Both the position numbers and the translations under genes were made by a program. A model generated the notes under the pieces. It ran no database searches, had not been told where the DNA came from, and saw nothing but the letters and a program-made list of their open reading frames with translations. A stretch of 64,000 bases of DNA from Deferribacterales bacterium Deferri_01 (GTDB lineage: Bacteria > Chrysiogenota > Deferribacteres > Deferribacterales > Geovibrionaceae), in assembly GCA_001603805.1 (NCBI GenBank), contig LUZY01000008.1, positions 62,001 through 126,000 on the forward strand, read 5' to 3'. Below are positions 1,529 through 58,985 of the stretch, in pieces. Numbering within the stretch: position 1 is the stretch's first letter; every line of letters begins with the position of its first letter.

Positions 1529-1533
1529 TTATA

Positions 1534-1629
1534 ATCCAAAATTTACCATCCATGGAAATTTTGGATACACGCTCGCGGTCTGCAAAGCAGACCTTCGCTA
1601 CGCACGGCGCAACTCCATCCTTGGAGTTG
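1534..1629 (+). repeat. three-hairpin intergenic repeat, copy A
   Basis: Complete copy of a family seen four times in this window. Hairpin 1 (1534-1566) has 11-bp arms ATCCAAAATTT / AAATTTTGGAT. Then comes the linker ACACGCTCGC. Hairpin 2 (1577-1593) is GGTCTGC-AAA-GCAGACC. Then comes the linker TTCGCTACGCACGGCGC. Hairpin 3 (1610-1629) is CAACTCCA-TCCT-TGGAGTTG. Linkers are nearly the same in the other copies, whereas the arms differ but still pair. It lies between convergent transcription units. Any longer reading frame across it looks accidental. Confidence 0.8.
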
Positions 1630-1650
1630 TATTCGACAATAACAAGCCAT

Positions 1651-1738
1651 CTGCACATCCTGTCAGATTAACACACACGCTCACGCCGAACTTCGTTCGT
1701 CTCCGCTACGCACGGCGCAGTTCCATCCATGGAACTGC
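1651..1738 (+). repeat. three-hairpin intergenic repeat, copy B
   Basis: Second copy, 22 bases after copy A and in the same orientation. Hairpin 1 has lost its outer left arm. Hairpin 2 (1685-1701) is GCCGAAC-TTC-GTTCGTC. Hairpin 3 (1717-1738) is GCAGTTCCA-TCCA-TGGAACTGC, a perfect 9-bp stem. Positions 1651-1719 match the reverse complement of 5135-5203 at 68 of 69 bases, so copies B and C are recent duplicates in opposite orientation on either side of the nik operon. Confidence 0.8.
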
Positions 1739-1804
1739 TTAACCAAAGCAGTTTATACTTAGAAATTGAAAGAATAATTGATGAAACTTGGAAAGATGGG
1801 GAGT

Positions 1805-2455
1805 TTATCCTTCGATGAGTCCGTTTTCGGTCAGGAACATTTTGCGGGCGCCGATTTTTTCAATAAAACCTAGATCGTGGGATACGATAAGCATAGTCTT
1901 ATCTATTCCTTTGAGGATTTCGGCAAGCTTATTCTCACTCTTTGCGTCAAGAGCGGCTGAGGGCTCATCAAGGAGCAGTATTGCAGGCTTCATTACAAGT
2001 ACAGACGCCAGGGCAACCATTTTCTTCTCACCGCCGGAGAGGTTCAGAGTTATACGGTCACGAAGATGGGATATGTGCAGTTCATCAAGCATCGCTTCCG
2101 CTTTTGCAACTGCTTCAGATTGTTTCATTCCTTCATTGAGGAGACCAAAAGCGACCTCCTCTATCACTGTAGGCGCGATAATCTGATCGTCAGGATCCTG
2201 AAAAAGAAACCCAACTTCACGCCTTGCCAGTGCGAAATCCTTCTCTGTTTCAAGTCTTTTGTGATGTATCTCAAAATGACCGGTGCTGATAGTCTGCAAA
2301 CCGACAATAGCTTTAAGCAGAGTTGTCTTACCTGCGCCGTTAGGACCCAGCACAGCAATTTTATCTTTATGGGTGAGATTAATAGTAACGTTTCTGAACA
2401 ATGTTCTGTCGCCTAAACAGCATGAAATATTATTTAATGACAGAGTGCAGCTCAT
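1805..2455 (-). CDS. nikO: nickel/cobalt ECF transporter ATPase
   Basis: A 216-residue ABC ATPase of the CbiO/NikO (EcfA) family that powers metal uptake with the NikM/NikQ membrane parts. Walker A is GPNGAGKTTLL near residue 37. The Q-loop lies in FLFQDPDDQI, the signature is LSGGEKK, and Walker B is ILLLDEPSAALD followed by the switch His in IVSHDLG. The acidic Q-loop sequence is typical of ECF-type ATPases. It is the last gene of a five-gene operon and overlaps nikQ by four bases. The family is certain. Nickel rather than cobalt is inferred from the presence of nikK and nikL. Confidence 0.9.
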   Translation of the reverse strand: MSCTLSLNNISCCLGDRTLFRNVTINLTHKDKIAVLGPNGAGKTTLLKAIVGLQTISTGHFEIHHKRLETEKDFALARREVGFLFQDPDDQIIAPTVIEEVAFGLLNEGMKQSEAVAKAEAMLDELHISHLRDRITLNLSGGEKKMVALASVLVMKPAILLLDEPSAALDAKSENKLAEILKGIDKTMLIVSHDLGFIEKIGARKMFLTENGLIEG

Positions 2456-3108
2456 ATAACCTGCCAGAATGTTAAGATAGTCTGGGCAACGAGAACAATA
2501 GCGAGAAGCGTGTCCGAACCAGCGAGGGGGTGTGTGTTGAAAGGATAAAGTTTTCCCTTAAAGCCTCTCAGAATCATTGCATGATGAAGTGATTTTGCTT
2601 TTTCCATACTTTTTATAAACAGCATTCCCACTAGATACCCTAAGATTTTATATGTGAACAGATTGGTTTTCGGATTAAAGCACCGTATTTTAAGCGAGTC
2701 ACGCATTTTTTTATATTCAGCGCCAAGAATCTCTATGTATTTGATAACAAAAAACAGCAGAACAGTGAATTTATCGGGAAACCTCAATCCGCAGAATCCG
2801 TAATAGATGCCCATTTTACCGTGTGGGGTTATTAGAAGAAGGTTTGCGCTTAGAATAAGGTTTGCACGAAGAAAAATAAGCAGAGCATATGATGCGTCAT
2901 TGTGAAAAAATAGAATAGTTGCGCATATAAAGAGGATTATAAGATTAAGGCGTAAAAGCCTGAGGAGCGGGCGCAAACCCTCTTTTATAGAGACTAATAT
3001 TAGAAAGAGCGCAAAAAAAGCATCATAAACTGTAATATCTGTTCTGAAGGCTATCAGCAGTGAATAGATTACAGCAGCGAAAAGGGCAGCGGGCGGAGAA
3101 AATTTCAT
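2452..3108 (-). CDS. nikQ: nickel/cobalt ECF transporter transmembrane (T) component
   Basis: A 218-residue CbiQ/NikQ-family protein (EcfT). Several hydrophobic helices occupy roughly residues 5-115. A long cytoplasmic region follows, including KKMRDSLKIRCF and AMILRGFKG; the Ala-Met-x-x-Arg-Gly segment matches the coupling helices that contact the ATPase. Both ends overlap neighbours by four bases (nikL upstream, nikO downstream), which indicates translational coupling in one operon. Confidence 0.9.
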   Translation of the reverse strand: MKFSPPAALFAAVIYSLLIAFRTDITVYDAFFALFLILVSIKEGLRPLLRLLRLNLIILFICATILFFHNDASYALLIFLRANLILSANLLLITPHGKMGIYYGFCGLRFPDKFTVLLFFVIKYIEILGAEYKKMRDSLKIRCFNPKTNLFTYKILGYLVGMLFIKSMEKAKSLHHAMILRGFKGKLYPFNTHPLAGSDTLLAIVLVAQTILTFWQVI

Positions 3109-3620
3109 TTTTTCCTGAAAAGCATGAACAGTCCGAAAATGCCTAAAAGATAGCCTATTCCGGCTATAATTTTATCTGTCTGAGTGCGTCCTGCGTCTAT
3201 GGCTGTCTGAATTTCAGCGGTTTGTTTTGCAAGCTCCTGGCGTATTATAGTTCGGAGAGCCTCTGAATTAACAGAAGTCTGAGTATCGGAGGACACTGAA
3301 GATTGTGAATCTGCAGACGGCTCAGGTACTACTTCCATTTTGGCGAAGTGTCCCATGCCCGCATCAACATTAACCGTGAAGGAAGAAGGAAGCTCTCCGC
3401 TTAAGACAGCTTCGCCGCTGTTGCTTAGGGTTCCTTTAAAAATCACATGTCCGTCGGTGCCTGTTACTGTATATGCGCAGCGTTTGCAGAATGTTCCGTC
3501 AGCAAAATATGAAGATATATTCAGTGTTCCGCTCTCGTAAATGGCAAGAACATTAAGTTTGTGTGCATATGCGGGTGAAAGAGCGGTTAATAACAAAAAG
3601 ACTGTGAGTAATTTTTTCAT
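3105..3620 (-). CDS. nikL: nickel ECF transporter accessory protein NikL-like
   Basis: A 171-residue exported protein. A signal peptide (about residues 1-19, ending AYA) precedes a small beta-rich domain with CKRC. A linker rich in Ser and Gln follows, then a C-terminal membrane helix (IIAGIGYLLGIFGLFMLF) with a basic end. This layout matches the NikL/CbiN-like extra component of NikKLMQO systems, which sits beside the NikM substrate-binding subunit. It overlaps nikM and nikQ by four bases each. The exact name rests on position and topology. Confidence 0.75.
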   Translation of the reverse strand: MKKLLTVFLLLTALSPAYAHKLNVLAIYESGTLNISSYFADGTFCKRCAYTVTGTDGHVIFKGTLSNSGEAVLSGELPSSFTVNVDAGMGHFAKMEVVPEPSADSQSSVSSDTQTSVNSEALRTIIRQELAKQTAEIQTAIDAGRTQTDKIIAGIGYLLGIFGLFMLFRKK

Positions 3621-4225
3621 TTTGCACTCCGGTGATCAATAAGAGAAGGGTAAACCTTCATTATAAAATTTAAAATGAATACTGTTGCAATACCCTCAAT
3701 GAACATCACTGGGATGTGAGCTAGAAGTATTGCCTGAGCAGCCTGAAACAGTTTATCGCCACTGAGAAAAAGCATAAATGCAACTAAAATACTTGAAAGA
3801 GTAACAGGAATAAAGCCTGTGAGAAAAAAGAGGACAGTCTTTTTGAACCCCTGCACAGCGAGAGCCTGCCTGAAGATGAAGTAAGCACACAATGCAGGGA
3901 AGGCAGCATCAAATGTGTTTACACCGAGAGTGGTTATGCCTCCGAATTGGAACAGCAGTCCCTGGAGCAGGAGTGCCATAAATATTGCAGGAAATGCGGC
4001 AAAGCCCAACACAGCCCCCACAAGACCGTTAAGCAAAAGATGTACACTGGAGGGACCCAGCGGGACATGTATAAAAGAACCGACAAAAAACAGGCTGGAC
4101 ATCAGCGCTGTTTTTGTCAGCATTTCATCTTTCATTTTACTGAAGCCGTAAACAAGAAAGCCCAGCGAGGCGGCCGCTCCTGCGCCAAGCACAGGAGCTG
4201 AAAGAATGCCTTCGGATATATGCAT
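3617..4225 (-). CDS. nikM: nickel/cobalt ECF transporter substrate-binding (S) component
   Basis: A 202-residue membrane protein of the CbiM/NikM family that binds the metal ion. It begins MHISEG; His2 of this motif is one of the nickel or cobalt ligands in the family, so the start is fixed by the chemistry. At least six hydrophobic segments follow, including HVPLGPSSVHLLLNGLVGAVLG with further conserved His residues. The start lies one base after the nikK stop. The protein forms the transporter core with NikQ and NikO. Confidence 0.92.
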   Translation of the reverse strand: MHISEGILSAPVLGAGAAASLGFLVYGFSKMKDEMLTKTALMSSLFFVGSFIHVPLGPSSVHLLLNGLVGAVLGFAAFPAIFMALLLQGLLFQFGGITTLGVNTFDAAFPALCAYFIFRQALAVQGFKKTVLFFLTGFIPVTLSSILVAFMLFLSGDKLFQAAQAILLAHIPVMFIEGIATVFILNFIMKVYPSLIDHRSAK

Positions 4226-4226
4226 A

Positions 4227-4982
4227 TTATTTTGCTCCGTAAGTTTTCACCCAAAAGACAGCGCCAAGTTCAACAGGATAGTCTTTGCCTTCGTGTTTGA
4301 CTGTTACGTCATCTTCGATAAGCGCTGCAAACGCCCACCAGCCGGTAAAGGGCATAGAGTAACTGAAAATACCGTTTGAGTCTGCCTTAATGACCTGAGT
4401 TATATGGGCATCGGTGGGGCTTTTAATCTTACTGCCTTTGTTATAAAATTCAACCTCAATTTCAGCATCCGCAACAGGTTTGCCTTTGTAGAGTACCTGA
4501 CCTGTAAAAGTGTTGCCTGTCCAGAGACCGTATGGGCGTGTAAGAGGAACAATTTCAGCTTTAAGACCCGCCGGTGTATCCCACCCTTCTTCCATTCCGA
4601 ATGCGTTGACTACAGTTTTTGTTATATGCTGTATGAAAACGCCTTCGGCAGGTTCAAAATAGTAGTCGGGTGTTACAGCGAAAATATAGTCACCGGGTTT
4701 TGTAAAAGAATATTTGAAGTCCCATGCTGTTTTACCTTCAACAGCAGTCTTCGATATGGATTTCATGAGATCTGTTTTTTTGCCGCCTAAGAAAACAGAA
4801 ACATCTTTAGGTTTAACCATTTCCATAACAGGCCCCTGCTCAAAGGGGTGGGTGAATTCCATGTGGAAGGATGCGGTTCTGGAAGTGGGGGTGACAACAT
4901 CTGTCGAAGGGATCAATGTCTGGAAATGAGCAAAAGAAACAGATGAACAAAGTATAAACAGCAGTGTAATGACTTTTTTCAT
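4227..4982 (-). CDS. nikK: periplasmic DUF4198-type nickel uptake protein NikK-like
   Basis: A 251-residue secreted protein whose signal peptide (about residues 1-18) ends in SFAHF, so a His would lie at or near the new N-terminus. The body resembles DUF4198 proteins, which occur as NikK in nickel ECF operons and carry a carboxypeptidase-like beta-sandwich domain. The start at 4982 is preferred because GGAG lies seven bases upstream; a start 60 bases earlier is open but falls within the promoter region. It is the first gene of nikK-nikM-nikL-nikQ-nikO. Confidence 0.8.
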   Translation of the reverse strand: MKKVITLLFILCSSVSFAHFQTLIPSTDVVTPTSRTASFHMEFTHPFEQGPVMEMVKPKDVSVFLGGKKTDLMKSISKTAVEGKTAWDFKYSFTKPGDYIFAVTPDYYFEPAEGVFIQHITKTVVNAFGMEEGWDTPAGLKAEIVPLTRPYGLWTGNTFTGQVLYKGKPVADAEIEVEFYNKGSKIKSPTDAHITQVIKADSNGIFSYSMPFTGWWAFAALIEDDVTVKHEGKDYPVELGAVFWVKTYGAK

Positions 4983-4992
4983 GATAAACTCC

Positions 4993-5078
4993 GTGTTACG
5001 TATTATGAATACTGTGTTATCATGATGGCATGGAAATGTCAATACGTGTTATTGTTGTGGTCGATAACGTTTGTGTTA
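4993..5078 (-). promoter_or_regulatory. nik operon promoter with repeated TAACAC boxes
   Basis: On the minus strand TTGACA (5037-5042) is spaced 17 bases from TAACAC (5014-5019). The hexamer TAACAC occurs four times in direct orientation (4993-4998, 5014-5019, 5046-5051, 5073-5078). One copy covers the -10 position, one lies just downstream and two lie upstream of -35. A small inverted repeat GTATT-ATG-AATAC (5000-5012) lies between two boxes. The arrangement suggests an operator for a metal-responsive repressor such as NikR. The regulator identity is inference. Confidence 0.5.
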
Positions 5079-5134
5079 TGATGAATATAGGAATGTGAGT
5101 CAGTTTGAAAACGGTTGTCAGGGATGTGGATAGT

Positions 5135-5209
5135 TGCGCCGTGCGTAGCGGAGACGAACGAAGTTCGGCGTGAGCGTGTGTGTTAATCTGACAGGATGTA
5201 CAGATTAAC
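5135..5209 (-). repeat. three-hairpin intergenic repeat, copy C (inverted)
   Basis: Third copy, on the minus strand. Hairpin 1 is complete here (TTAATCTG paired with CAGATTAA around an ACA-TCC-TGT tip). The linker and hairpin 2 are identical to copy B. Hairpin 3 is missing: after GGCGCA the sequence no longer pairs. The copy lies between the tRNA terminator and the nik promoter. With copy B it brackets the whole nik operon as an inverted repeat. Confidence 0.8.
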
Positions 5210-5223
5210 ACTATTATATAAAG

Positions 5224-5258
5224 AAAAAAGGCTTGCTCATTCAATGAGCAAGCCTTTA
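5224..5258 (-). terminator. terminator of the initiator tRNA gene
   Basis: A 14-bp perfect stem (AAAGGCTTGCTCAT / ATGAGCAAGCCTTT) is followed, in minus-strand direction, by a run of T. It lies 13 bases past the tRNA 3' end. Confidence 0.9.
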
Positions 5259-5270
5259 AACTTGTTGAAA

Positions 5271-5344
<74 letters not shown>

Positions 5345-5356
5345 CCAAGGATTGCT

Positions 5357-5385
5357 AACATACACGCCGGATTATTTGTTGTCAA
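5357..5385 (-). promoter_or_regulatory. promoter of the initiator tRNA
   Basis: On the minus strand TTGACA (5380-5385) and TATGTT (5357-5362) are separated by 17 bases. The -10 box ends 13 bases before the tRNA 5' end. Confidence 0.7.
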
Positions 5386-5501
5386 GAATAAATATAAAAT
5401 TTTTTTTAAATCTATGGCAGTTGAAAAATAACGAAGACTATCATAGGATTGATATTAGCCACAGGCGCAGTCTGTGGGATTTAAAAATGAAGGTGAAAAC
5501 T

Positions 5502-6353
5502 ATGAATCTTTTTTATATATCCGCAGTTTTTTTTCTTGTAACGGGTGTTACCGCTTATATCTCTCCGCAGCTTCCCGCAGGAGCCAACGCATCTTTCCTG
5601 CTCACCCTGCTTGTGTTTGCCACAGCGGCGGTAACTGGCTATGGGTACTGGCGCTCAGTAAGGGATAAAAAACGTGAAGAGGAACTCAGCGGTATGATTC
5701 TCCGTGAGGAGAAACGCACTGTGGGCAGATTTCTCATCCACGAATGGCGTGGAGTTATCCAGAGCATAGGCATTCAGGCGGAAATGATGGAACGTGCGGA
5801 AAACATGGAAGGTGTGCGGGTGAACTGCGGAGTGATAAGAAAAATACTTCGTGAAGAGTCTGAAAAAACTGATAAGGCGGAGTTTTATTTCCGTAAAGAC
5901 GGACAGTCCATGAAGAAATCCTCGAAGGCTATACAGAAAGCAGTCTCCGATGCCGAGGTTTTCCACGGCAAAAACCGTATAAAGGTGCTGTACAATACGA
6001 ATAAAAAAGATACGAAGACCGATTTTGACAGGCTTCACCCTTGCATATTTTTTGCGCTGATGAATACTTTTTCAGCAATCACAGACAAAAACAGCACAGT
6101 CACTGTAAATGTTGCAGAAAGAACTCTTGGATTTACTGAATTCCTTGAGATTTCAGTTCAGGGCGGTGATATGCTCTTTGATAAGGAAACGGAAGATCTC
6201 TTTCAGCCGTTTAACATATCGCCGGATAAATTCAGGGGATATTTCGGACTTGCGACTGTACGGAGGCTTGCCGCTGACATGGGAGGCTTCGCCGAGGCGG
6301 AGCGGGGTATTGATAAAACCAGTGTGTATATTGTCGTTCCGGTGGCTAAATGA
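5502..6353 (+). CDS. membrane-bound histidine-kinase-like protein
   Basis: A 283-residue protein with two membrane helices (about residues 3-20 and 31-50), then a helical segment with a possible phospho-acceptor His80 in FLIHEWRGVIQ, and a GHKL-like C-terminal ATPase region ending in GYFGLATVRRLAADMGG. The N-box is poor (ALMNTFSAI) and no clear DxGxG box is seen, so catalysis may be weak or absent. AAGGTG six bases before 5502 favours this start; longer starts run into the tRNA gene. Its stop overlaps the glnE start (ATGA). No partner response regulator is adjacent. Confidence 0.65.
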   Translation: MNLFYISAVFFLVTGVTAYISPQLPAGANASFLLTLLVFATAAVTGYGYWRSVRDKKREEELSGMILREEKRTVGRFLIHEWRGVIQSIGIQAEMMERAENMEGVRVNCGVIRKILREESEKTDKAEFYFRKDGQSMKKSSKAIQKAVSDAEVFHGKNRIKVLYNTNKKDTKTDFDRLHPCIFFALMNTFSAITDKNSTVTVNVAERTLGFTEFLEISVQGGDMLFDKETEDLFQPFNISPDKFRGYFGLATVRRLAADMGGFAEAERGIDKTSVYIVVPVAK

Positions 6354-9190
6354 CGGATAAATTTAATAAAGTAATGAGTGTAACAGACCATCCTGATAAA
6401 AAAGATCTCGAAAAGGTGTTCAGGCATTCGCTGTTTATTGCCGGCTGGCTTGAGAAACACCCTGAGTATGCTGCAAAGGCTCTGGATTTGGCAAAGCTTG
6501 AGCGTAATGTTGACAGCATTCTGGATGACATCCTTACTCTGGATTTTCATGAACTTGATGAGAATGCTCTCTTAAAACATCTTCGTATGATCAAAATGAC
6601 GGAGTACACCGCCATAGCTCTCAAGGATCTGGTTTATGGTGCAGATGTGAAGGATATCACGGCGCATATTTCTTCATTTGCATCAGCTTCACTTGAAGCG
6701 GCATATAAATATGCTTATTTCAATCTGAGCCGTGAGCTTGGAAGACCACAGGACGAGAGCGGAGCCCGAATCGGCATGACGGTCATAGGGCTTGGCAAAC
6801 TGGGCGGCTGGGAGCTTAATTTCAGCTCTGACATAGATATAATGTATGTTTACGACACGGAGATGGGCCGAACAGACGACAGCGGCGAAAAGCCCTCTGT
6901 GGAGAATCATGTATTTTTTACCCGGCTGGCGGAAAAAATAACCAACTATATCGGAACAAGAACAGAGGACGGAATAGTGTTCCGTGTGGATCTCCGTCTT
7001 CGTCCCGATGGCGACAGGGGTGCTATAGTTCTTCCCGTGCGGAGCTGTGAGATCTACTACGAGTCCTACGGTCAGGGCTGGGAGCGTATGATGCTCCTTA
7101 AGGCGCGCCCAGTTGCGGGTGATAAACGTACCGGAGCAGATTTTCTCCGTGCTGTCCGTCCGTTTGTTTTCAGGCGCAGTCTGGATTATAAACTTCTGGA
7201 TGAGCTTAAAAACATAAAGCAGAAGATAGACCGCAGAGAGGAAAAACGGGGCAACAGAAATGTTAAACTGGGTTACGGCGGTATCAGAGAGATAGAGTTT
7301 GTTGTTCAGGCTTTTCAGATTCTTTACTACCCCAAGCATCCGGAGATTTATCATCCGTCAACTCTTGAGGGAATAGATCTTCTGGTCCGCTTCGGTCAGC
7401 TTGAGGCAGAGACGGCGGAGAGGCTGAAAAAAGAATACCGTTTTCTCCGCCGGCTTGAGCATATGGCGCAGATCGAGGATGAAAAGCAGACTCATGTGAT
7501 ACCGGAGGACAGTTCTTCATATCCTCTTTATCTTGAGCGCTGCGGGTTTGAGTCTGAAGATGAGTTCAACAGAAAGTATGAAAAAACCACAAACTTTGTG
7601 CATCAGGTCTTTTCAGGCATTTTTCGTGATCATGAAAACACAGACGCTTCCTCGCTGATTTTTGACAAAGAGCTTGAGCAGGAGGAAGTGGCGAGGATTA
7701 TTCAGGATAAGGGGATAAAGGACTCCGTAAAGTGTTCGTCCATAATAAAAGAGATACTTCAGGGGCGTAAAAACTTCATCCGCACACCGGAGGAGATACG
7801 GATAATAGAGATGGTGCTTACCCGTGTACTGGAGCATTTGCCGGAAAGGACAGACCCTGCGGGCACTCTGCTTAATTTTGAGAAGCTTCTCTCTCACCCT
7901 ACAACTGTTTATCTTCTTCAGGACATAATCACCGGAGCTCCTGCGATTCTGGATAAGCTGGAGAATATATTCTCCTTCAGCCGTTATATGTCAGACCAGA
8001 TAATAAGTGACCGCACGCTGCTTGATTATGTATACGACCCGAAGAATCCGGATTTTAAAAGCGGATCAATCAGGCTTGATTACCATGAACGTACAAGAAA
8101 ATACAAGGGCGATACCGAATATATAATGGAAATAGTCCGGCAGAGGCATAAGGCTTATATTTTTAATGTCGGCTATGCGTTTCTCAACGGAACTCTGAAT
8201 GTTATACATACAATGAAGGCTCTCACTGAGCTTGCCAAAGGAACCATACAGTTTGCTGTGGACAATGCTTATGAGCAGGTCACAGAGAGGTACGGCAGAC
8301 CCCTGACTGATGACGGCCGGATATGTGATTTTCTTGTGGTCGGCATGGGCAAGCTGGGCAGCTATGAGATGAGCTTCGGGTCTGATCTGGACATAATTTT
8401 TCTGTATGAGCAAAACGGCAGGACAGACGGTAAAAATCAGATAACAAATATGGAATTATTTACGAAGGTTCTTCAGCGTGCCATATCCTTTTTAAGCTCT
8501 TACACCACAAACGGCATTCTTTACAAAATCGACACAAGGCTGCGCCCAAGCGGTTCCAGCGGAACTCTGGTTACAAGCCTTCCCGCTTTCCGTGAGTATC
8601 AGCTCAAGGAGGCTATGGTATGGGAAAAACAGGCTCTGGCACGTTCGAGTGTTGTAAACACTGATTCCTCGCTTAATACTGTGTTTGACGAAATCAAGAT
8701 GGAGTGTCTTTTCAGTTCCCCTTTGTCAAAAGAAGGGCTAAAAGATATAAAAGAAATGCGTGCAAGGATAGAGACGGAAAAAGGTTCTCCTCCTGAAAAG
8801 AACGATATAAAAGCAGGTTACGGCGGGATGCTGGATATTGAATTTACAGTTCAGATGCTTCAGCTTCTCACCGGATATGAGGATGAAAACGTCCGCAACC
8901 CCAATACGCATGATGTGATGGTGCATCTTAAGAATAAAGGCTTCATAAAAGACAGGGACTATTATGCCCTGCATGACAGCTATCATTTTTACCGGACGCT
9001 GGAAAATGTTCTGCGTGTTTATGAAAATACCTCAACATCAAGGCTTCCGTCAAATGAAGAGATTTTGGCAAAGGCGGGGATGTTCTTTTGTTTTGAGAAA
9101 AACCCTGCGGAATGTTTAAGTGAAAAGTATGCGTGGGTGCGCAAAAGTGTTCGTGCCGCATACAACAGAGTTTTTGAGAGGTACATGTAA
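6350..9190 (+). CDS. glnE: bifunctional glutamine synthetase adenylyltransferase/deadenylase
   Basis: A 946-residue protein, full length for the family. It adenylylates and de-adenylylates glutamine synthetase according to nitrogen status. It contains two nucleotidyltransferase modules. The N-terminal one (about residue 140) shows GLGKLGGWELNFSSDIDIMYVYD and the C-terminal one (about residue 665) shows GKLGSYEMSFGSDLDIIFLYE; the paired aspartates are the metal ligands. A helical linker separates them and each module is followed by a regulatory helical bundle. It overlaps the upstream kinase-like gene by four bases. The next gene starts two bases after its stop. Confidence 0.95.
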   Translation: MTDKFNKVMSVTDHPDKKDLEKVFRHSLFIAGWLEKHPEYAAKALDLAKLERNVDSILDDILTLDFHELDENALLKHLRMIKMTEYTAIALKDLVYGADVKDITAHISSFASASLEAAYKYAYFNLSRELGRPQDESGARIGMTVIGLGKLGGWELNFSSDIDIMYVYDTEMGRTDDSGEKPSVENHVFFTRLAEKITNYIGTRTEDGIVFRVDLRLRPDGDRGAIVLPVRSCEIYYESYGQGWERMMLLKARPVAGDKRTGADFLRAVRPFVFRRSLDYKLLDELKNIKQKIDRREEKRGNRNVKLGYGGIREIEFVVQAFQILYYPKHPEIYHPSTLEGIDLLVRFGQLEAETAERLKKEYRFLRRLEHMAQIEDEKQTHVIPEDSSSYPLYLERCGFESEDEFNRKYEKTTNFVHQVFSGIFRDHENTDASSLIFDKELEQEEVARIIQDKGIKDSVKCSSIIKEILQGRKNFIRTPEEIRIIEMVLTRVLEHLPERTDPAGTLLNFEKLLSHPTTVYLLQDIITGAPAILDKLENIFSFSRYMSDQIISDRTLLDYVYDPKNPDFKSGSIRLDYHERTRKYKGDTEYIMEIVRQRHKAYIFNVGYAFLNGTLNVIHTMKALTELAKGTIQFAVDNAYEQVTERYGRPLTDDGRICDFLVVGMGKLGSYEMSFGSDLDIIFLYEQNGRTDGKNQITNMELFTKVLQRAISFLSSYTTNGILYKIDTRLRPSGSSGTLVTSLPAFREYQLKEAMVWEKQALARSSVVNTDSSLNTVFDEIKMECLFSSPLSKEGLKDIKEMRARIETEKGSPPEKNDIKAGYGGMLDIEFTVQMLQLLTGYEDENVRNPNTHDVMVHLKNKGFIKDRDYYALHDSYHFYRTLENVLRVYENTSTSRLPSNEEILAKAGMFFCFEKNPAECLSEKYAWVRKSVRAAYNRVFERYM

Positions 9191-9191
9191 A

Positions 9192-9722
9192 GTGCTGAGG
9201 TTTTTGGCAGTTATAGACTATGAAACCTTTGGTGACAGCTATCTTCAGGTTGCAGAAAGAGTCGCAGACCGATCGGAGATGATATGGTTCAGGGCGAAGA
9301 ATCTGGACGCCGGAGATATTTACCGAAAGGCGGCTAAAATGCGTGAGCTTCTGCCGGATGCGTTTCTTATTCTGTCCGAAAGACCGGACATAGCTATTGC
9401 GGCGGGTTTTGACGGTGTTCAGCTTAATGAGCGGACACTGCCGCCGGAAACGGTTGAAGAGGTTTTTCCTGAACTGGTCACAGGTTACTCCGCCCATTCT
9501 CTGGAAGAGATAGAGAAGGTTCAGGCGGATTTTTTTACGTTAAGTCCCATATTTATGACAGACAAACCTTACGAGGTTAAGCCTTTGGGTGCTGTTGATG
9601 TCACCGATACGGAGAAAAAAGTTTATGCTCTGGGAGGCGTTACTGTGAGTGCGCTTTCAGATTTGAATGAAAAAGGTTATTTCGGCTATGCCGGAATAGG
9701 GATTATAAAGGGTATGATATAG
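9192..9722 (+). CDS. ThiE/TenI-family thiamine phosphate synthase-like protein
   Basis: A 176-residue TIM-barrel protein starting at GTG two bases after glnE. An upstream in-frame ATG would lie inside glnE and is not favoured. Family traits include DGVQLNERTLP, GYSAHSLEEIEKV, FFTLSPIFMTDKP and the terminal phosphate-binding segment YALGGVTVSAL...GYAGIGIIKGM. True ThiE joins HMP-PP and thiazole phosphate; TenI-like relatives often act in other thiamine salvage steps. The protein is shorter than typical ThiE, so TenI or a divergent ThiE are both possible. thiD and thiSF lie elsewhere in the window. Confidence 0.7.
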   Translation: MLRFLAVIDYETFGDSYLQVAERVADRSEMIWFRAKNLDAGDIYRKAAKMRELLPDAFLILSERPDIAIAAGFDGVQLNERTLPPETVEEVFPELVTGYSAHSLEEIEKVQADFFTLSPIFMTDKPYEVKPLGAVDVTDTEKKVYALGGVTVSALSDLNEKGYFGYAGIGIIKGMI

Positions 9723-9827
9723 ATTTGACCCGAAATCAGCGTATATTTCAGATGCCTGTCTCTCCTGCACGGATAATCCGCTTCGTTGTGCAGACTTGTC
9801 AGGCAGAGGAAAGTTCTCAGATCTCAC

Positions 9828-9844
9828 TTGCAAATCATTTGCAA
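9828..9844. promoter_or_regulatory. Fur-family operator (probable Zur box)
   Basis: TTGCAAAT-C-ATTTGCAA is a perfect 17-bp palindrome with the 7-1-7 core TGCAAAT-n-ATTTGCA typical of Fur/Zur operators. It lies 17 bases before the chosen zur start, directly upstream of AAGGAA. Binding there would block transcription or ribosome access, giving autoregulation of the zur-znuACB operon. Confidence 0.7.
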
Positions 9845-9861
9845 AAGGAATATGTTTTTTC

Positions 9862-10290
9862 ATGGCAGTATGTGTTGCAGCGGATCTTCTCAGATCCAAA
9901 AAGCTCAAAATTACTGAAAGACGGGAGATTGTCCTCTCTCTGATTCTCTCTGCGGAGCGTCCTATGAGTGCAAAAGACTTGCACGAGGCGGCAACGGAGA
10001 AGGGGAATATCGATCTCGTCACGGTTTATCGTGTGGTATCCCTACTTCTTGAGAAGGGGCTTATCAGGGAAATTACCGGCGATTCGGGCACATCCTTCTA
10101 TGAAAAAGCGTGCGAGCATAATCCTGTACATCCTCATTTTCACTGCTGCGAATGCGGGAAAGTGTATTGTTTGGAGCCGCTTACTTTTGAGGAAGGTCTT
10201 ATTCTGGGACGTGTGGGCAAAGGCTTCCGCATCTCCTCCGTTTCGCTGGACATCAAAGGAGTATGTGAAAAATGCGCTTCCTTGCAGTGA
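9862..10290 (+). CDS. zur: Fur-family zinc uptake regulator
   Basis: A 142-residue Fur-family repressor. An N-terminal winged helix (about residues 1-80, with DLVTVYRVVSLLLEKGLI) precedes a dimerisation domain holding a His-rich loop (HNPVHPHFHC) and two Cys pairs, CCEC near residue 96 and CEKC near the end, which form the structural zinc site. The ATG at 9862 is chosen because the palindrome at 9828-9844 would otherwise lie inside the coding region. It overlaps znuA by 19 bases. The zinc role is inferred from the znuACB genes downstream. Confidence 0.82.
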   Translation: MAVCVAADLLRSKKLKITERREIVLSLILSAERPMSAKDLHEAATEKGNIDLVTVYRVVSLLLEKGLIREITGDSGTSFYEKACEHNPVHPHFHCCECGKVYCLEPLTFEEGLILGRVGKGFRISSVSLDIKGVCEKCASLQ

Positions 10291-11237
10291 TTACAGGTCT
10301 GTTAATTCTTCTTTCATCACAGGTTTATGCCGCAGATTTTAAAGCGGCGGTCAGCATTATCCCCCAGAAGTATCTTGCGGACAAGATAACCGGAGGACGC
10401 TTTGAAACAATGGCGGTTGTGGGCAAAGGCTCAAACCCTCACAACTATGAACCAAAGCCTCAGCAGATGGTTTTTATTTCCAAGGCTCAGGTTTATTTTT
10501 CAATTGACCTTTCCTTTGAGGATGTATGGCTTGAAAAGCTTCTTTCGACAAATAAAAATATAATACATGTGGACTGCGCTGATGCTGTGCCCAGATACCC
10601 TATTCCCGGTGAGATTATCGAACCCGATGAACACGGACATGAACACGGCGAGGAGCATGACCATGACCACGAGCATGGCGAAGACGAGCATCACCACGAT
10701 CATGAGCATGGTGAGGAAGAACATCACCACGACCATGACCACAGCGGGCTTGATCCGCACATATGGCTTTCTCCTATGAATATGAAAATAATGGCTAAAC
10801 TTATGGCGAATACTTTTTCAGAGATAGACCCGGCAGGTAAAAGTGTTTATGATGCCAACCTCTCAGCTCTTCTCAAAGAAATAGACACAGCAGACGCCAG
10901 AATACGTGAAAACCTCAAAGGCGTGCCGAAAGATTCTCCTTTCATGGTTTTTCATCCTTCATGGGGCTACTTTGCAAGGAAGTATAATCTTCGCCAGGTG
11001 GCTGTTGAGGTGGAAGGTAAAGAGCCCAAACCCGCACAGCTTCAGGAGCTTATAGGCTATGCCAAAGAAAGGGGAATAAAGGTTGTCTTTGTGCAGCCGC
11101 AGTTCTCCAAAAAAAGCGCACAGGCTATAGCATCCTCCATAGGCGGTGAAGTTGCGGAGCTTGACCCCCTTGCATACGAGTGGAGCAGCAACCTTATACA
11201 TGTTTCGGAAGTTCTCGGAAAGGTGCTGAAAAAATAA
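10272..11237 (+). CDS. znuA: zinc ABC transporter substrate-binding protein
   Basis: A 321-residue periplasmic protein with a signal peptide (about 1-20, ending VYA). It belongs to cluster A-I metal-binding proteins. Ligand motifs are GSNPHNYEPKP (His near residue 57), the DPHIWLSP His near 162 and VFHPSWGYFA near 227. A long loop around residues 118-158 is very rich in His, Asp and Glu (HEHGEEHDHDHEHGE-like), a hallmark of zinc-specific members. It is the second gene of zur-znuA-znuC-znuB and directly abuts znuC. Confidence 0.95.
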   Translation: MRFLAVITGLLILLSSQVYAADFKAAVSIIPQKYLADKITGGRFETMAVVGKGSNPHNYEPKPQQMVFISKAQVYFSIDLSFEDVWLEKLLSTNKNIIHVDCADAVPRYPIPGEIIEPDEHGHEHGEEHDHDHEHGEDEHHHDHEHGEEEHHHDHDHSGLDPHIWLSPMNMKIMAKLMANTFSEIDPAGKSVYDANLSALLKEIDTADARIRENLKGVPKDSPFMVFHPSWGYFARKYNLRQVAVEVEGKEPKPAQLQELIGYAKERGIKVVFVQPQFSKKSAQAIASSIGGEVAELDPLAYEWSSNLIHVSEVLGKVLKK

Positions 11238-11999
11238 ATGAACGCAATAGAAATCAATGATTTAGGGTTCTCCTACGGGGAGAACCCCATACTTACCGAT
11301 GTCAGCCTTGCTTTGCCGGAGGGGGAGTTTCTGGCTGTCATAGGTCCGAACGGCGGGGGAAAATCCACCCTGCTTAAGATTATTTTGGGCATTCTGCGTC
11401 AGAACAGGGGCGAGGTTCGAGTGTTCGGTAAAACAGTTTCGGACGCAGCAGGGCTTATAGGCTATGTACCGCAGGATGTTACTTCAGCAAGGGGTTTTCC
11501 CATAAATGCTTTTCAGGTCGCCATGATGGGCAGGATGAAGCTCAAAGGGCGCTTTGCCCGTGCGGACAGGGCAGATATAGAGAAGGTACGCTCTGTGATG
11601 GAGTATCTGGAAGTGGAACATCTGGCTGGTTCTCCTGTGGATAACCTTTCCGGAGGTCAGAAACAGAGGGTTTTCATATCCCGTGCCCTTGCCATGGAGC
11701 CGAAAATGCTCTTTCTGGATGAGCCCACCTCAAGCGTGGATACCAAAGGGCAGAAAGACCTTTTTGACAGACTCCGTGAGCTGAACAAAACAATGACAAT
11801 AGTGGTGGTTAGCCACGATTTAAGCATAATACCCAGATACGCCACAAGCGTTGCATGCATTAACAATAAGCTTCATTTTCACTCCTCACCGGAGGTAACA
11901 CCGGAGATGCTCCGCATGGCTTACGGCGGCACAGGCTGCGACGAATGCGATTCTTTGGGGATTCCGCAAAACCTCCACGGAGGTCACACCCATGCTTGA
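11238..11999 (+). CDS. znuC: zinc ABC transporter ATPase
   Basis: A 253-residue ATPase. Walker A is GPNGGGKSTLL near residue 35, the Q-loop is YVPQD, the signature is LSGGQKQR, Walker B is MLFLDEPTSSVD and the switch His lies in VVSHDLS. The C-terminus has a metal-ligand-like tail (CDECDSLG...HGGHTHA), common in zinc and manganese ATPases. It starts immediately after the znuA stop and overlaps znuB by eight bases. Confidence 0.93.
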   Translation: MNAIEINDLGFSYGENPILTDVSLALPEGEFLAVIGPNGGGKSTLLKIILGILRQNRGEVRVFGKTVSDAAGLIGYVPQDVTSARGFPINAFQVAMMGRMKLKGRFARADRADIEKVRSVMEYLEVEHLAGSPVDNLSGGQKQRVFISRALAMEPKMLFLDEPTSSVDTKGQKDLFDRLRELNKTMTIVVVSHDLSIIPRYATSVACINNKLHFHSSPEVTPEMLRMAYGGTGCDECDSLGIPQNLHGGHTHA

Positions 12000-12798
12000 G
12001 GCACTCTCCTTCGGATTTATGCAGAACGCACTTCTTGCGGGGCTGTTTGCCTGTATAGCCTGCGGCATTATAGGCACTCTGGTTGTTGTAAACCGCATAG
12101 TATTCATATCCGGCGGCATAGCCCATGCGGCTTACGGCGGTATAGGTCTTGCTTTTTTTCTGGGTATATTTCCCCTTTTCGGAGCTTTAGGCTTCTCTGT
12201 TGCGGTGGGCGTGCTTGTGGCTTTTATATCCATGAGCAATAAAAAGCGTGCGGATACTGTCATCGGCGTTGTCTGGTCTCTGGGTATGGCTGTGGGCATC
12301 ATCCTTACAGATCTTACGCCGGGATACAATGTTGATTTGATGAGCTATCTCTTCGGGAGCATTCTGGCTGTTCCGCAGTCTGACCTTTGGCTTATGGCCG
12401 TTCTTGATCTGGCTGTTGTCCTCTTTATTGTCTTCTTTTTCAGAGATCTTCAGGCAATGAGCTTTGATGAGGACTTTGCCGTTTCCATAGGTGTTCCGGT
12501 TAAGCCGCTTTATTATCTGCTGATAATAATGGTTGCGCTCACTGTTGTTCTGATAATACGTGTGGTGGGGCTGATTCTGGTTATAGCGATGATAAGCATC
12601 CCGCCTTATATTGCGGAGCGTTATGTCAAGGATCTGCGGCTGATGATGGTTTCATCCGTTGTGCTGAACCTGCTGTTTACCGTGACGGGGCTTTGGCTGT
12701 CATACACCTTTAACCTTACGTCAGGTGCGGCGATAATAATGGTGGCTTCTGCGGCGTTTTTCCTGTCCGAATTTTTCGGAAGGGTAATAAAAAGCTGA
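11992..12798 (+). CDS. znuB: zinc ABC transporter permease
   Basis: A 268-residue permease of the ABC-3 family with about eight membrane helices. It shows the family-typical segment GGIAHAAYGGIGLAFFLG near residue 45 and the late helix LILVIAMISIPPYIAE. It would pair with ZnuC and receive zinc from ZnuA. It is the last gene of the operon and is followed by a terminator hairpin. Confidence 0.93.
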   Translation: MLEALSFGFMQNALLAGLFACIACGIIGTLVVVNRIVFISGGIAHAAYGGIGLAFFLGIFPLFGALGFSVAVGVLVAFISMSNKKRADTVIGVVWSLGMAVGIILTDLTPGYNVDLMSYLFGSILAVPQSDLWLMAVLDLAVVLFIVFFFRDLQAMSFDEDFAVSIGVPVKPLYYLLIIMVALTVVLIIRVVGLILVIAMISIPPYIAERYVKDLRLMMVSSVVLNLLFTVTGLWLSYTFNLTSGAAIIMVASAAFFLSEFFGRVIKS

Positions 12799-12803
12799 TG
12801 AGA

Positions 12804-12838
12804 AGGGGAAACTAACCGTCAGTTTTCCCCTGCTTCTT
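12804..12838 (+). terminator. terminator of the zur-znuACB operon
   Basis: The stem GGGGAAACT / AGTTTTCCCC (one bulge) is followed after a few bases by a T-rich tract. It lies between convergent znuB and rsmB and may serve both directions. Confidence 0.75.
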
Positions 12839-12839
12839 T

Positions 12840-13994
12840 TTATTTTATTTTCTCAAGAACTGCGGCGAAGAAGCCGTCACAGTTTGATTTTGAGGGATCA
12901 GACACGAAGTAGTCCCCCCTTATGAACTCATCGGGGCAGGCGGGCTTAACCGCCCTGAAACCGGGGTTCTCCGTGAGAAAAGCGTTGACTATATCTGTTG
13001 TTTCCTCCGGCTCCGTGGTGCATACGCTGTAAATGAGTCTGCCATGTTTTGCCAGAAGCCTGCTTGTTTTTATCAGCATCTTTCTCTGGATTGAGGCTTT
13101 TTCTCTTATCTGCATCTCATTGCGTATCCAGCGTATTTCAGGGTGTTTGCGCATGGTTCCGATAGCCGTACATGGAGCATCAAGAAGGATGATGTCAAAA
13201 GCTTCGTCCCCTTCCATCTTCATTATGTCATTGTTGACAGGCTGAACATTATCAAGTCCGAACCTCTCAACAGTTTCTTCCAGAACCTCAAATCTTTTCG
13301 GATTTATCTCAACGGCGAATACTATCGACTCAGGATACATTTTTCCCAGAATAAGAGTTTTGCCGCCGGGTGCAGCGCAGCAGTCCAGAACGGATGCAGG
13401 CTCAAGTTTCCCGGCAAGGGTCGGTATCATAGCCGATGCCTTATCCATGTAGTAAAGGTTTTCGGCTTCCTCGTCATATTCCTCAACCTCTTCCACGGCA
13501 AGGTTCTCAACATTCAGCGCATATAAAGGGGGAGCCTGATTGTAAGCCGCCATTATCTTCTCTGCGGATATGTTGCCGTAGCGCTTGCGCCAACGGTCAG
13601 CAAGCCACGCGGGGAAATTATCACGCTCAACAGATGCGGCAAGTATCTCCTCTCGCTTTGCTATTATTTTGCGGAGAACAGCGTTGATAAACCCACGCTT
13701 GTTTTTGCCCACAAGGCTCACAGATTCATTAACGGCAGCATAGTCCGGTACATCGTTCATGTAAAGAAGCTGGGCGGAACCCATAACAAGAGCCGCCATC
13801 TGCTCCGGCGCCGGACGAAATTCAGTGAACCGCCCTATCGCCTTTTCTATGGTGCCGAGATTACGGAATATCTCAAAATACAGTTTGCGGTAAAAACGCC
13901 GCATGACCGCATCCTGAAAATAATCTTCCCTGTATTTCTTCGAGTAATAGTCTGTCAGCAGACTGTAAAGCCTGCCTCGCATCTTGTCGGACAT
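12840..13994 (-). CDS. rsmB: 16S rRNA (cytosine-967-C5)-methyltransferase
   Basis: A 384-residue protein with an N-terminal NusB-like RNA-binding domain (about 1-130) and a C-terminal SAM-dependent methyltransferase. SAM-binding motif I is VLDCCAAPGGKTLIL. The two catalytic cysteines lie in LLDAPCTAIG and YSVCTTEPEE, the pattern of m5C RNA methyltransferases. Pro before the first and the position of the second match RsmB/Sun. It is the last member of the fmt-DUF116-htpX-rsmB series on the minus strand, separated from htpX by 286 bases. Confidence 0.92.
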   Translation of the reverse strand: MSDKMRGRLYSLLTDYYSKKYREDYFQDAVMRRFYRKLYFEIFRNLGTIEKAIGRFTEFRPAPEQMAALVMGSAQLLYMNDVPDYAAVNESVSLVGKNKRGFINAVLRKIIAKREEILAASVERDNFPAWLADRWRKRYGNISAEKIMAAYNQAPPLYALNVENLAVEEVEEYDEEAENLYYMDKASAMIPTLAGKLEPASVLDCCAAPGGKTLILGKMYPESIVFAVEINPKRFEVLEETVERFGLDNVQPVNNDIMKMEGDEAFDIILLDAPCTAIGTMRKHPEIRWIRNEMQIREKASIQRKMLIKTSRLLAKHGRLIYSVCTTEPEETTDIVNAFLTENPGFRAVKPACPDEFIRGDYFVSDPSKSNCDGFFAAVLEKIK

Positions 13995-14059
13995 ATGTTT
14001 CTTTATCCTTTGGTTTTGGATTTTCTTATTTCAGACAGGTTAATAAATTATTATAACTT

Positions 14060-14095
14060 GAGAAACCCTTTTTTAACGGGAAAAAAGGGTTTCTC
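14060..14095. terminator. long A/T-flanked inverted repeat, probable bidirectional terminator
   Basis: A perfect 15-bp stem GAGAAACCCTTTTTT / AAAAAAGGGTTTCTC with a six-base loop lies between htpX and rsmB (both minus strand). The A and T runs are built into the stem, so it could end the htpX transcript or the repeat-derived RNA from either side. Confidence 0.6.
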
Positions 14096-14174
14096 ATACT
14101 CTTCCCAAAAAACCGGATTTTTGAAAAGCTTAAATTAGATGCAAAGCTATGCCTACATCGCTTCTGACTTTATG

Positions 14175-14270
14175 ATGTCAAATTTATCATCCTGAAAATT
14201 TGTCATACACGCTCGCGCCGTGGTAAACACGGCTTCGCTTCGCACGGCGCATCTCCATCCTTGGAGATGC
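14175..14270 (+). repeat. three-hairpin intergenic repeat, copy D
   Basis: Complete copy. Hairpin 1 (14175-14206) has arms ATGTCAAATTT / AAATTTGTCAT (one mismatch) around TCA-TCC-TGA. Linker ACACGCTCGC follows. Hairpin 2 (14217-14233) is GCCGTG-GTAAA-CACGGC, again 17 bases. The linker is TTCGCTTCGCACGGCGC. Hairpin 3 (14249-14270) is GCATCTCCA-TCCT-TGGAGATGC. It lies just past the htpX stop. Arms differ from copy A yet pairing is kept. Confidence 0.8.
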
Positions 14271-14280
14271 AAAGCTATAC

Positions 14281-15123
14281 TTACATAGCTTCAAGTCGGG
14301 CGATTCTCTCCTCAACAGGGGGGTGAGTGGAGAAAAGGTTCATAGCCTGCCTGCCGGAGAAGGGGTTCATTATAAACATGTGGGCTGTTGCAGGCTGTGC
14401 CTCATCCATTGGCGCTGCCGCCACGCCGCCGGAAATTTTGCGGAGTGCGTTTGCAAGTGCTTTCGGTTTGCCGCAGAGCTTTGCGCCTCTGGCATCGGCT
14501 ATATATTCTCTGGATCTTGAGATCGCCATCTGTATCATCATCGCAGCAATCGGAGCTATTATCATTGCCGCAATAGCCGCTATGGGGTTGCTGTTTTCGC
14601 CGTTCTCGCTTCTGCCGCCGCCGAAAATCATAGCCCACTTTGCAGTATTTGCTATCATCATGATTGCGCCGGCGAAGGTTGCCGCAACTGTGCCGATAAG
14701 TATGTCACGCCCGTAGATGTGCGCCAGCTCGTGAGCGAGAACTCCCTCAAGTTCATCATCGCTGAGAAGGTCAACTATCCCTGTGGTTACTGCAACTGCT
14801 GCGTTTTCAGGGTTTCTGCCCGTAGCGAATGCGTTGGGGGTCTCGCTGTGCATAACATATACCTTAGGCATGGGTATTCCGCCCTTCGCCGTGAGGTTAC
14901 GGACTATTCTGTGAATGCCCGGTGCTTCGGTCTCGTCAACCTCAACCGCTTTGTACATCTTCAGCACAAGTTTGTCACTGAACCAGTAGGAGAAGAAGTT
15001 CATTCCTATCGCAAGGATAAAAGCGAACATCATTCCTCCTCTTCCGCCTATGAGACTTCCCACAAACATGAAAAGCACGGTGAGAAGCGCCATGAAGAAT
15101 GCTGTTTTCATAGAGTTGCTCAT
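14281..15123 (-). CDS. htpX: M48-family zinc metalloprotease HtpX
   Basis: A 280-residue membrane metalloprotease for quality control of membrane proteins. Two N-terminal helices precede the catalytic zinc motif HELAH (within [13 protein letters not shown], about residue 136). Two more hydrophobic segments follow, then [13 protein letters not shown], which supplies the third ligand Glu. The length fits HtpX. A 28-base gap separates it from the upstream DUF116 gene, so co-transcription is likely. Confidence 0.93.
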
Positions 15124-58275: not shown

Positions 58276-58506
58276 TCAGGTTCCCTGGTTCTTAAAGAAA
58301 TCCACAAGAGATACAAGGTTTTCCTTGGTGGCTGCCTGAATGTTTTCATCCTTTATCGCCTCAAAAATCTCCTTGCGGTGGACACTTACATCTCTGGGGG
58401 CATCAATTCCGAGCTTAACGCTCTTGCCCGCCACCTCCACTATGCGGATCTCGATATTTTCACCAATAATTATACTTTCATTTGTCTTTCTGGAGAGTAC
58501 AAGCAT
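58276..58506 (-). CDS. csrA: carbon storage regulator CsrA
   Basis: A 76-residue RNA-binding protein starting [25 protein letters not shown], with the RxKxN and [15 protein letters not shown] motifs that make the GGA-binding surface. It blocks translation of target mRNAs, in FliW-containing bacteria mainly flagellin-related. Its ATG overlaps the fliW stop (TGATG). Confidence 0.95.
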
Positions 58507-58985
58507 CACTTATCCTTGGCGGCAAAAAGCGGAGCTTTTATCATCCACCTGTCATCTTCAAGTATAACCTGTTTCGCCAGTTTTTTCTCCGGATTTAAAA
58601 GAATAGGCGCACGCAGATTTACTGTCGCATTTTTCGGATCTTCGGGAACAACCACAATTGCGGCAAGCTTAAGATCCTCTTCTTTTTCTATGCCAAGAAT
58701 CTTAAGCTCACGTTTATTGATTTTCGGGTCATAATTCGGATGAAAGATCTTCGGCTCAATGAGTATGAAGCATACATCAGGGTCTTGTGTTGCCTGAAAC
58801 CAAATAAACGGGAATGATTTATCACCTGAGATCAGGAGAAAGTCGCTGAGTTCGGGAAACCCGAGCAGCGGAGCAGACAGAGTGATTATATCATTCTCCG
58901 TATATTCAATCGGACCCAGTTTGGTTGAGGACATTTTTATTTTTTCCATTGAAACCTCTGTGTTTTCTGCAAGGTTTGATTTCAT
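58506..58985 (-). CDS. fliW: flagellar assembly factor FliW
   Basis: A 159-residue protein of the FliW family: [28 protein letters not shown] near residue 25 and [17 protein letters not shown] near the end. It binds CsrA and is displaced by flagellin, linking filament assembly to translation. AAGGAGT lies nine bases before the ATG. It lies between flgL and csrA. Confidence 0.93.

What the first reader, a model, noticed from the sequence alone, without database searches (positions are those of the whole stretch)
1534..14270. Dispersed three-hairpin intergenic repeat with compensatory arm changes
Seen directly: four intergenic copies (1534-1629, 1651-1738, 5135-5209 on minus, 14175-14270). The plan is hairpin 1, linker ACACGCTC(G/A)C, a 17-base hairpin 2, linker T(T/C)CGCT(A/T)CGCACGGCGC, hairpin 3. 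Linkers are nearly invariant, but hairpin arms differ and still pair: GGTCTGC/GCAGACC, GCCGAAC/GTTCGTC, GCCGTG/CACGGC for hairpin 2; CAACTCCA, GCAGTTCCA and GCATCTCCA, each with its complement, for hairpin 3. Tips of hairpins 1 and 3 share TCC. Inference: selection acts on structure, so it may be a structured RNA, a processing site, or a non-autonomous mobile or REP-like element. I know no family of this exact form.
Basis: partly seen in the sequence, partly recalled or inferred. Interest (0 to 1): 0.75.

Follow-up and report, generated by a model that had tools for sequence, protein, structure and literature searches.

The report
Mobile hairpin repeat with CsrA-like sites
Bacteria of the order Deferribacterales carry over a hundred copies of a small mobile DNA repeat that lands at gene ends and, when copied into messenger RNA, should fold into paired hairpins that look like docking sites for the global regulator CsrA; binding itself is untested.

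Summary
All four copies are real (copy 3 lacks hairpin 3). The genome has about 140 copies in about 69 clusters; two congeners have 136 and over 200. Diverged relatives occur across the family and in a second family of the order (Deferribacterales). Covariation is overwhelming. There is no Rfam match, and neither Y1 (REP-type) transposase nor reverse transcriptase was found in the complete high-copy relatives tested. On the other strand hairpins 1 and 3 carry C-A-(N)-GGA-N-G in their loops, the CsrA/RsmA recognition loop, while most other stem pairs vary freely. That strand is sense to the upstream gene in 53/62 and 57/73 sites, often starting right after its stop codon. csrA and fliW lie in this window. 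Some copies are flanked by direct repeats of about 20-70 bp, and a congener has the window's 14.2-kb site empty with one repeat copy, so the element is or was mobile. Best reading: a non-autonomous mobile repeat that places paired CsrA-type hairpins in 3'UTRs and intercistronic mRNA, as dispersed sponge or local regulator. The mobile structured element is well supported. CsrA binding is inferred from sequence and untested; the mobilising enzyme is unknown.

The parts
1531..1629 (-). Copy 1, complete. Strand given is the GGA (probable RNA) strand. On the + strand: hairpin 1 1534-1566, linker 1567-1576, hairpin 2 1577-1593, linker 1594-1609, hairpin 3 1610-1629
   Evidence: 112.5 bits
1643..1737 (-). 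Copy 2 of the same array; hairpin 1 shortened (tip 1649-1668), linker 1675-1684, hairpin 2 1685-1701, linker 1702-1717, hairpin 3 1718-1737
   Evidence: the orthologous two-unit array in G002 has different but paired stems
5135..5214 (+). Copy 3, GGA strand is +; hairpin 3 missing; lies between tRNA-Met (5271-5344 -) and a DUF4198 gene (4227-5042 -)
14165..14270 (-). Copy 4, complete insert of 106 nt between target duplications. On the + strand: TGACTTT end 14165-14171, hairpin 1 14172-14206, linker 14207-14216, hairpin 2 14217-14233, linker 14234-14249, hairpin 3 14250-14269
   Evidence: empty site in G001, same insertion in G002
14143..14164 (.). Target duplication, first copy AAAGCTATGCCTACATCGCTTC
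14271..14292 (.). Target duplication, second copy AAAGCTATACTTACATAGCTTC; holds the last codons and stop codon of the M48 peptidase gene (14281-15123 -)
58276..58509 (-). csrA, the candidate protein partner (77 aa, Pfam CsrA E 1.6e-25; the only csrA match in this genome)
58506..58985 (-). fliW, CsrA antagonist gene (Pfam FliW E 4.8e-37); context only

Best explanation
That RNA folds as hairpin(GGA) - linker - hairpin 2 - linker - hairpin(GGA). It lies in 3'UTRs and between cistrons, often directly after a stop codon and sometimes ending just before a ribosome-binding site. Both GGA loops have the form C-A-(N)-GGA-N-G, so the RNA probably binds the CsrA dimer; in tandem arrays each unit adds one or two sites. 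Binding would either titrate CsrA (a dispersed CsrB-like sponge) or control stability or translation of the host mRNA. Shown: copies, structure, loop motif, orientation, target duplications, presence of csrA and fliW. Inferred: transcription, CsrA binding, effect on expression.
For: Covariation. CsrA-type loop in 108/118 (hairpin 1) and 97/118 (hairpin 3) distinct G002 copies, N positions variable, closing C-G pair nearly fixed while most neighbouring pairs vary. Same loops in a second family with diverged arms and linkers. Published CsrA motifs (PMC7652899; PMC6692469). GGA strand sense to the upstream gene 53/62, 57/73, 24/30 and 11/11; 19/19 shared sites keep orientation. More G.U pairs on the GGA strand. 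Single csrA next to fliW in the window. Mobility: long direct repeats and an empty site.
Against: No binding or expression data. GGA-loop conservation within one genome partly reflects common descent. Stems of 8-14 pairs are longer than in most E. coli SELEX winners, although long stem-loops were selected with Campylobacter CsrA. The two GGA sites are far apart in primary sequence. Some genomes of the order have csrA without the element. G.U bias is weak in G000 at locus level (p 0.24).
Confidence: 0.55

Rival explanations
1. A purely selfish mobile DNA element, comparable to YPAL/RU-2. Hairpins form in single-stranded DNA and are recognised by an unknown recombinase, or copies arise by replication template switching. 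GGA tips belong to that recognition, and the position after stop codons only reflects where insertions are tolerated.
For: Real insertions with 20-70 bp duplications and empty sites; stems almost all Watson-Crick with few G.U, as expected if arms are matched at DNA level; YPAL has variable duplications of 3-26 bp (PMC2229807).
Against: Does not explain the sense bias to the upstream gene and its conservation, the exact match of both loop classes to CsrA sites with free N positions, or their persistence in a second family.
Confidence: 0.25
2. A CsrA-independent mRNA element: a stable 3'-end or intercistronic structure that blocks exonucleases or is cut by RNase III, as proposed for ERIC and NEMIS.
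For: Sense orientation, position after stop codons and between cistrons; stable fold, z -3.6 to -5.1 on the GGA strand; ERIC and NEMIS act on mRNA (PMC2229807).
Against: Does not require GGA in two of three loops with a fixed closing C-G pair.
Confidence: 0.15
3. A REP element mobilised by a RAYT (Y1 transposase).
For: High copy number, palindromes with compensatory changes, intergenic clusters.
Against: No Y1_Tnp in G000, G001, G002, G003 or G023. IS200/IS605 transposases do not make larger target duplications (PMC2817692), but these copies have them.
Confidence: 0.03

Closest known systems
CsrB/CsrC and RsmX/Y/Z CsrA-sponge RNAs
   Same: Several hairpins with GGA in the loop of the form CAGGA(U/A/C)G or ANGGAN; repeated units
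   Different: Not one sRNA gene but a mobile repeat dispersed over dozens of mRNA ends; conserved middle hairpin without GGA; occurs with FliW; binding untested
YPAL/RU-2 of Yersinia
   Same: Small mobile repeat with internal inverted repeats and target duplications of variable length (3-26 bp)
   Different: Three hairpins, duplications up to about 70 bp, CsrA-type loops, different phylum and sequence
REP/BIME with RAYT
   Same: More than 100 intergenic palindromic copies, compensatory changes, composite arrays
   Different: No Y1 transposase, head-to-tail rather than alternating arrays, long target duplications
ERIC and NEMIS (Correia) elements
   Same: Dispersed structured repeats co-transcribed with genes and thought to act on mRNA
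   Different: No MITE-like terminal inverted repeats seen; GGA loops; strict sense orientation

Membership tests
CsrA-binding RNA (CsrB/RsmZ-like) | GGA in hairpin loops with CAGGA(U/A/C)G or CANGGANG context | tested here: met
CsrA-binding RNA (CsrB/RsmZ-like) | CsrA protein encoded in the genome | tested here: met
CsrA-binding RNA (CsrB/RsmZ-like) | Binds CsrA with high affinity | not testable with these tools
   needs gel shift or CLIP
CsrA-binding RNA (CsrB/RsmZ-like) | Discrete sRNA gene with its own promoter and terminator | not tested
   dispersed copies beside genes; no promoter search was made
REP/RAYT system | Cognate Y1 transposase (RAYT) in the genome or close relatives | tested here: not met
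REP/RAYT system | GT(A/G)G head next to the palindrome | tested here: not met
   no such head in the aligned copies or between the duplications
YPAL/RU-2-like mobile repeat | Variable-length target duplications at insertion sites | tested here: met
YPAL/RU-2-like mobile repeat | Sequence similarity to YPAL | not tested
   YPAL sequence was not at hand
Retro-element | Reverse transcriptase in genomes with many copies | tested here: not met
   PF00078 absent in G001, G002, G003, G023; one copy in G000
Rfam RNA family | Covariance-model match at gathering score | tested here: not met

The most novel reading that the evidence does not exclude
A mobile repeat family that spreads ready-made pairs of CsrA sites into the 3'UTRs and intercistronic gaps of many mRNAs, so that the CsrA regulon and the total CsrA-titrating capacity of a FliW-type bacterium are rewired by transposition and by the number of tandem units: a decentralised counterpart of CsrB-type sponge RNAs.
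Probability: 0.35. Interest if true: 0.85.

Novelty: new variant of a known kind. Interest (0 to 1): 0.64.

Why it matters
CsrA control by sponge RNAs is described mainly for Gammaproteobacteria, and control by FliW for flagellated bacteria that lack those sRNAs. A review says it is undetermined whether FliW and RNAs act together in any species (PMC7652899). Here csrA-fliW coexists with 140 or more dispersed copies bearing CsrA-type loops, which makes that question testable. It would also be a mobile element whose conserved content is a pair of protein-binding RNA loops. The long, variable target duplications point to an insertion mechanism that is not identified.

Tried and rejected
REP/RAYT: no Y1 transposase. 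Retro-element: no RT in the high-copy complete genomes. Known RNA family: none at gathering score and nothing credible at permissive E-values. Intrinsic terminator: no U-run after hairpin 1 or 3 in the copies read. Pairing of the two linkers with each other on the GGA strand appears in the minimum-energy fold but rests on G.U pairs with variable bases, so I do not rely on it. The first gene calls counted ORFs overlapping arrays; repeated without them, the result was the same. Model R2's automatic structure missed hairpin 1, so it was used for searching only. Several literature searches found nothing on these repeats.

Full report
WHAT IS THERE. The window is C8:62001-126000 of a 2.85-Mb genome. 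Denitrovibrio belongs to Geovibrionaceae, Deferribacterales. The window's own genus is unnamed in the data. The complete element is about 98-106 nt: hairpin 1, linker ACACGCTC(G/A)C, hairpin 2 (17 nt), linker TTCGCTNCGCACGGCG, hairpin 3. Copy 3 lacks hairpin 3. Hairpin 1 has 14 pairs, with one unpaired base below the three pairs that carry the loop.

COPY NUMBER AND SPREAD. The linker-2 core occurs 112 times in this genome and 136 and 301 times in two congeners, with almost none elsewhere. It also finds diverged relatives in three other genera of the family and in a second family of the order. A second model for that family finds 113 copies in G023 and 17-30 in related species. About half the clusters hold two or more units in tandem, up to six, with a period specific to each site, 91 to about 200 nt. 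Internal units in some arrays lack hairpin 3 and are joined by a short spacer.

STRUCTURE IS MAINTAINED. On 20 diverse copies 92.3% of cells pair (66.8% shuffled) and 24 of 29 pairs have two-sided changes. On 118 distinct G002 copies the covariation score is 0.653 against 0.186 +/- 0.006 shuffled and at most 0.13 for slid structures. Copies in one genome are related, so cells are not independent, and the alignment was fitted to the structure. The same pattern holds between species: at the shared 14.2-kb site hairpin 2 reads GCCGTGGTAAACACGGC here and GGTTTGCAGAGCAAACC in G002, both well paired. Gene conversion from other copies could contribute to this.

THE OTHER STRAND IS THE INFORMATIVE ONE. 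The tips read C-A-N-GGA-N-G (hexaloop) or C-A-GGA-N-G (pentaloop) in 108/118 (hairpin 1) and 97/118 (hairpin 3) distinct G002 copies, and in 110/135 and 94/135 in G000, where some units lack hairpin 3. Both N positions vary. The C-G pair closing this motif is almost fixed, while most other stem pairs use several Watson-Crick types. This is the published CsrA/RsmA recognition loop: CsrB repeats CAGGA(U/A/C)G, SELEX consensus RUACARGGAUGU, RsmE loop ANGGAN (PMC7652899), and A_GGA in stem-loops for Campylobacter (PMC6692469). The GGA loops persist in the second family, where arms and linkers have diverged. A simple hairpin finder there scores 31/50 and 34/50, a lower estimate because it mis-picks some hairpins.

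ORIENTATION. The GGA strand is sense to the gene upstream in 53/62 clusters of G000 (binomial p 1e-8), 57/73 of G002 (p 1.5e-6), 24/30 loci in the second family and 11/11 in other genera of the same family. Divergent promoter gaps are nearly empty (2 and 4 clusters). Many copies start 0-30 nt after the stop codon, and a group ends 14-24 nt before the next start codon. In the second family several sit directly before a ribosome-binding site and ATG. All 19 sites shared by G000 and G002 keep the same orientation. Genes were called by a simple ORF rule, so single cases may be wrong. Mismatches that would be G.U pairs on the GGA strand outnumber those that would be G.U on the other (48:20 in G002; 68:43 in G000, where the locus-level sign test gives p 0.24). 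That is supporting, not decisive.

IT IS OR WAS MOBILE. Direct repeats (alignment score 20 or more) flank 20 of 148 clusters, against 2 of 438 in shuffled pairings; at score 25 or more it is 18 against 0. Lengths run from about 20 to 76 bp and often contain a gene end or start, so the gene stays whole. In the window, copy 4 lies between 22-bp repeats that hold the last codons of an M48 peptidase gene. G001 has the empty site with one repeat copy, G002 has the same insertion, and the comparison gives an insert of 106 nt that begins TGACTTTATGATG and ends with hairpin 3. A second clean case is L187 (61-bp repeats) against the empty site L223. No Y1 transposase was found in G000, G001, G002, G003 or G023, and no reverse transcriptase in G001, G002, G003 or G023. 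The enzyme is therefore unknown. Template switching during replication is a possible enzyme-free route (inference).

CANDIDATE PARTNER. The one csrA found in this genome is in this window at 58276-58509 (-), next to fliW (58506-58985) and, by sequence, flgL. Nine of ten genomes of the order tested have csrA, including some without the element, so presence of csrA alone does not predict the element.

MECHANISM. Most likely steps: the element is transcribed with its upstream gene (inferred from orientation); the RNA presents two CsrA-type loops per full unit and more in arrays (shown in sequence; folding predicted); CsrA binds (inferred); the outcome is titration of CsrA, or protection or repression of the host mRNA (inferred). 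I give this reading 0.55. A selfish DNA-hairpin element or a CsrA-independent mRNA element are the main rivals.

LITERATURE. No paper found in the held library describes these repeats, or CsrA with dispersed repeats, in Deferribacteres. The main text of the Mucispirillum genome paper mentions neither CsrA nor intergenic repeats. Subscription papers are not covered. The closest mobile analogue is YPAL/RU-2, with 3-26 bp target duplications (PMC2229807). Verdict: a real family that I could not find described; a new variant of a known kind.

Noticed in passing
L219, L221, L237 (G002); L276, L283, L287, L301 (G023): Other dispersed hairpin-like repeats inside or beside the arrays: GTCATTGCGAACCCTGCAAGGGTGAAGCAATCTC, GTCATTCTGAGCAGAGCGAAGAATCT and AGATACTTCGCC..GGCTCAGTATGAC.
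   Followed up: no
L191 (G000:C10:27244-27537): The first 44 bp of a gene that starts like fliM (ATGGCAGATATTTTAAGTCAGGAAGAG) occurs three times around two elements; the sequence before the last copies carries a new ribosome-binding site.
   Followed up: partly
L213:17227-17324 versus L218 about 3804-4020: The G002 site that scored as empty keeps a solo GGA hairpin (GCTTTTCAGGAAGAAAAGC) right after the stop codon, so it is a deletion remnant or a pre-existing hairpin.
   Followed up: partly
G000:C3:114810-115451 (L302): A reverse transcriptase ORF (501 aa) in this genome that is absent from the congeners with more copies.
   Followed up: no
L190 and L254:12739: Flanking duplications resemble each other more within a species than between species, which suggests recombination or gene conversion between the repeats.
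   Followed up: partly
window 32947-33246 and 34807-35106: Two adjacent minus-strand genes share a 300-bp stretch at 71% identity, probably paralogues.
   Followed up: no
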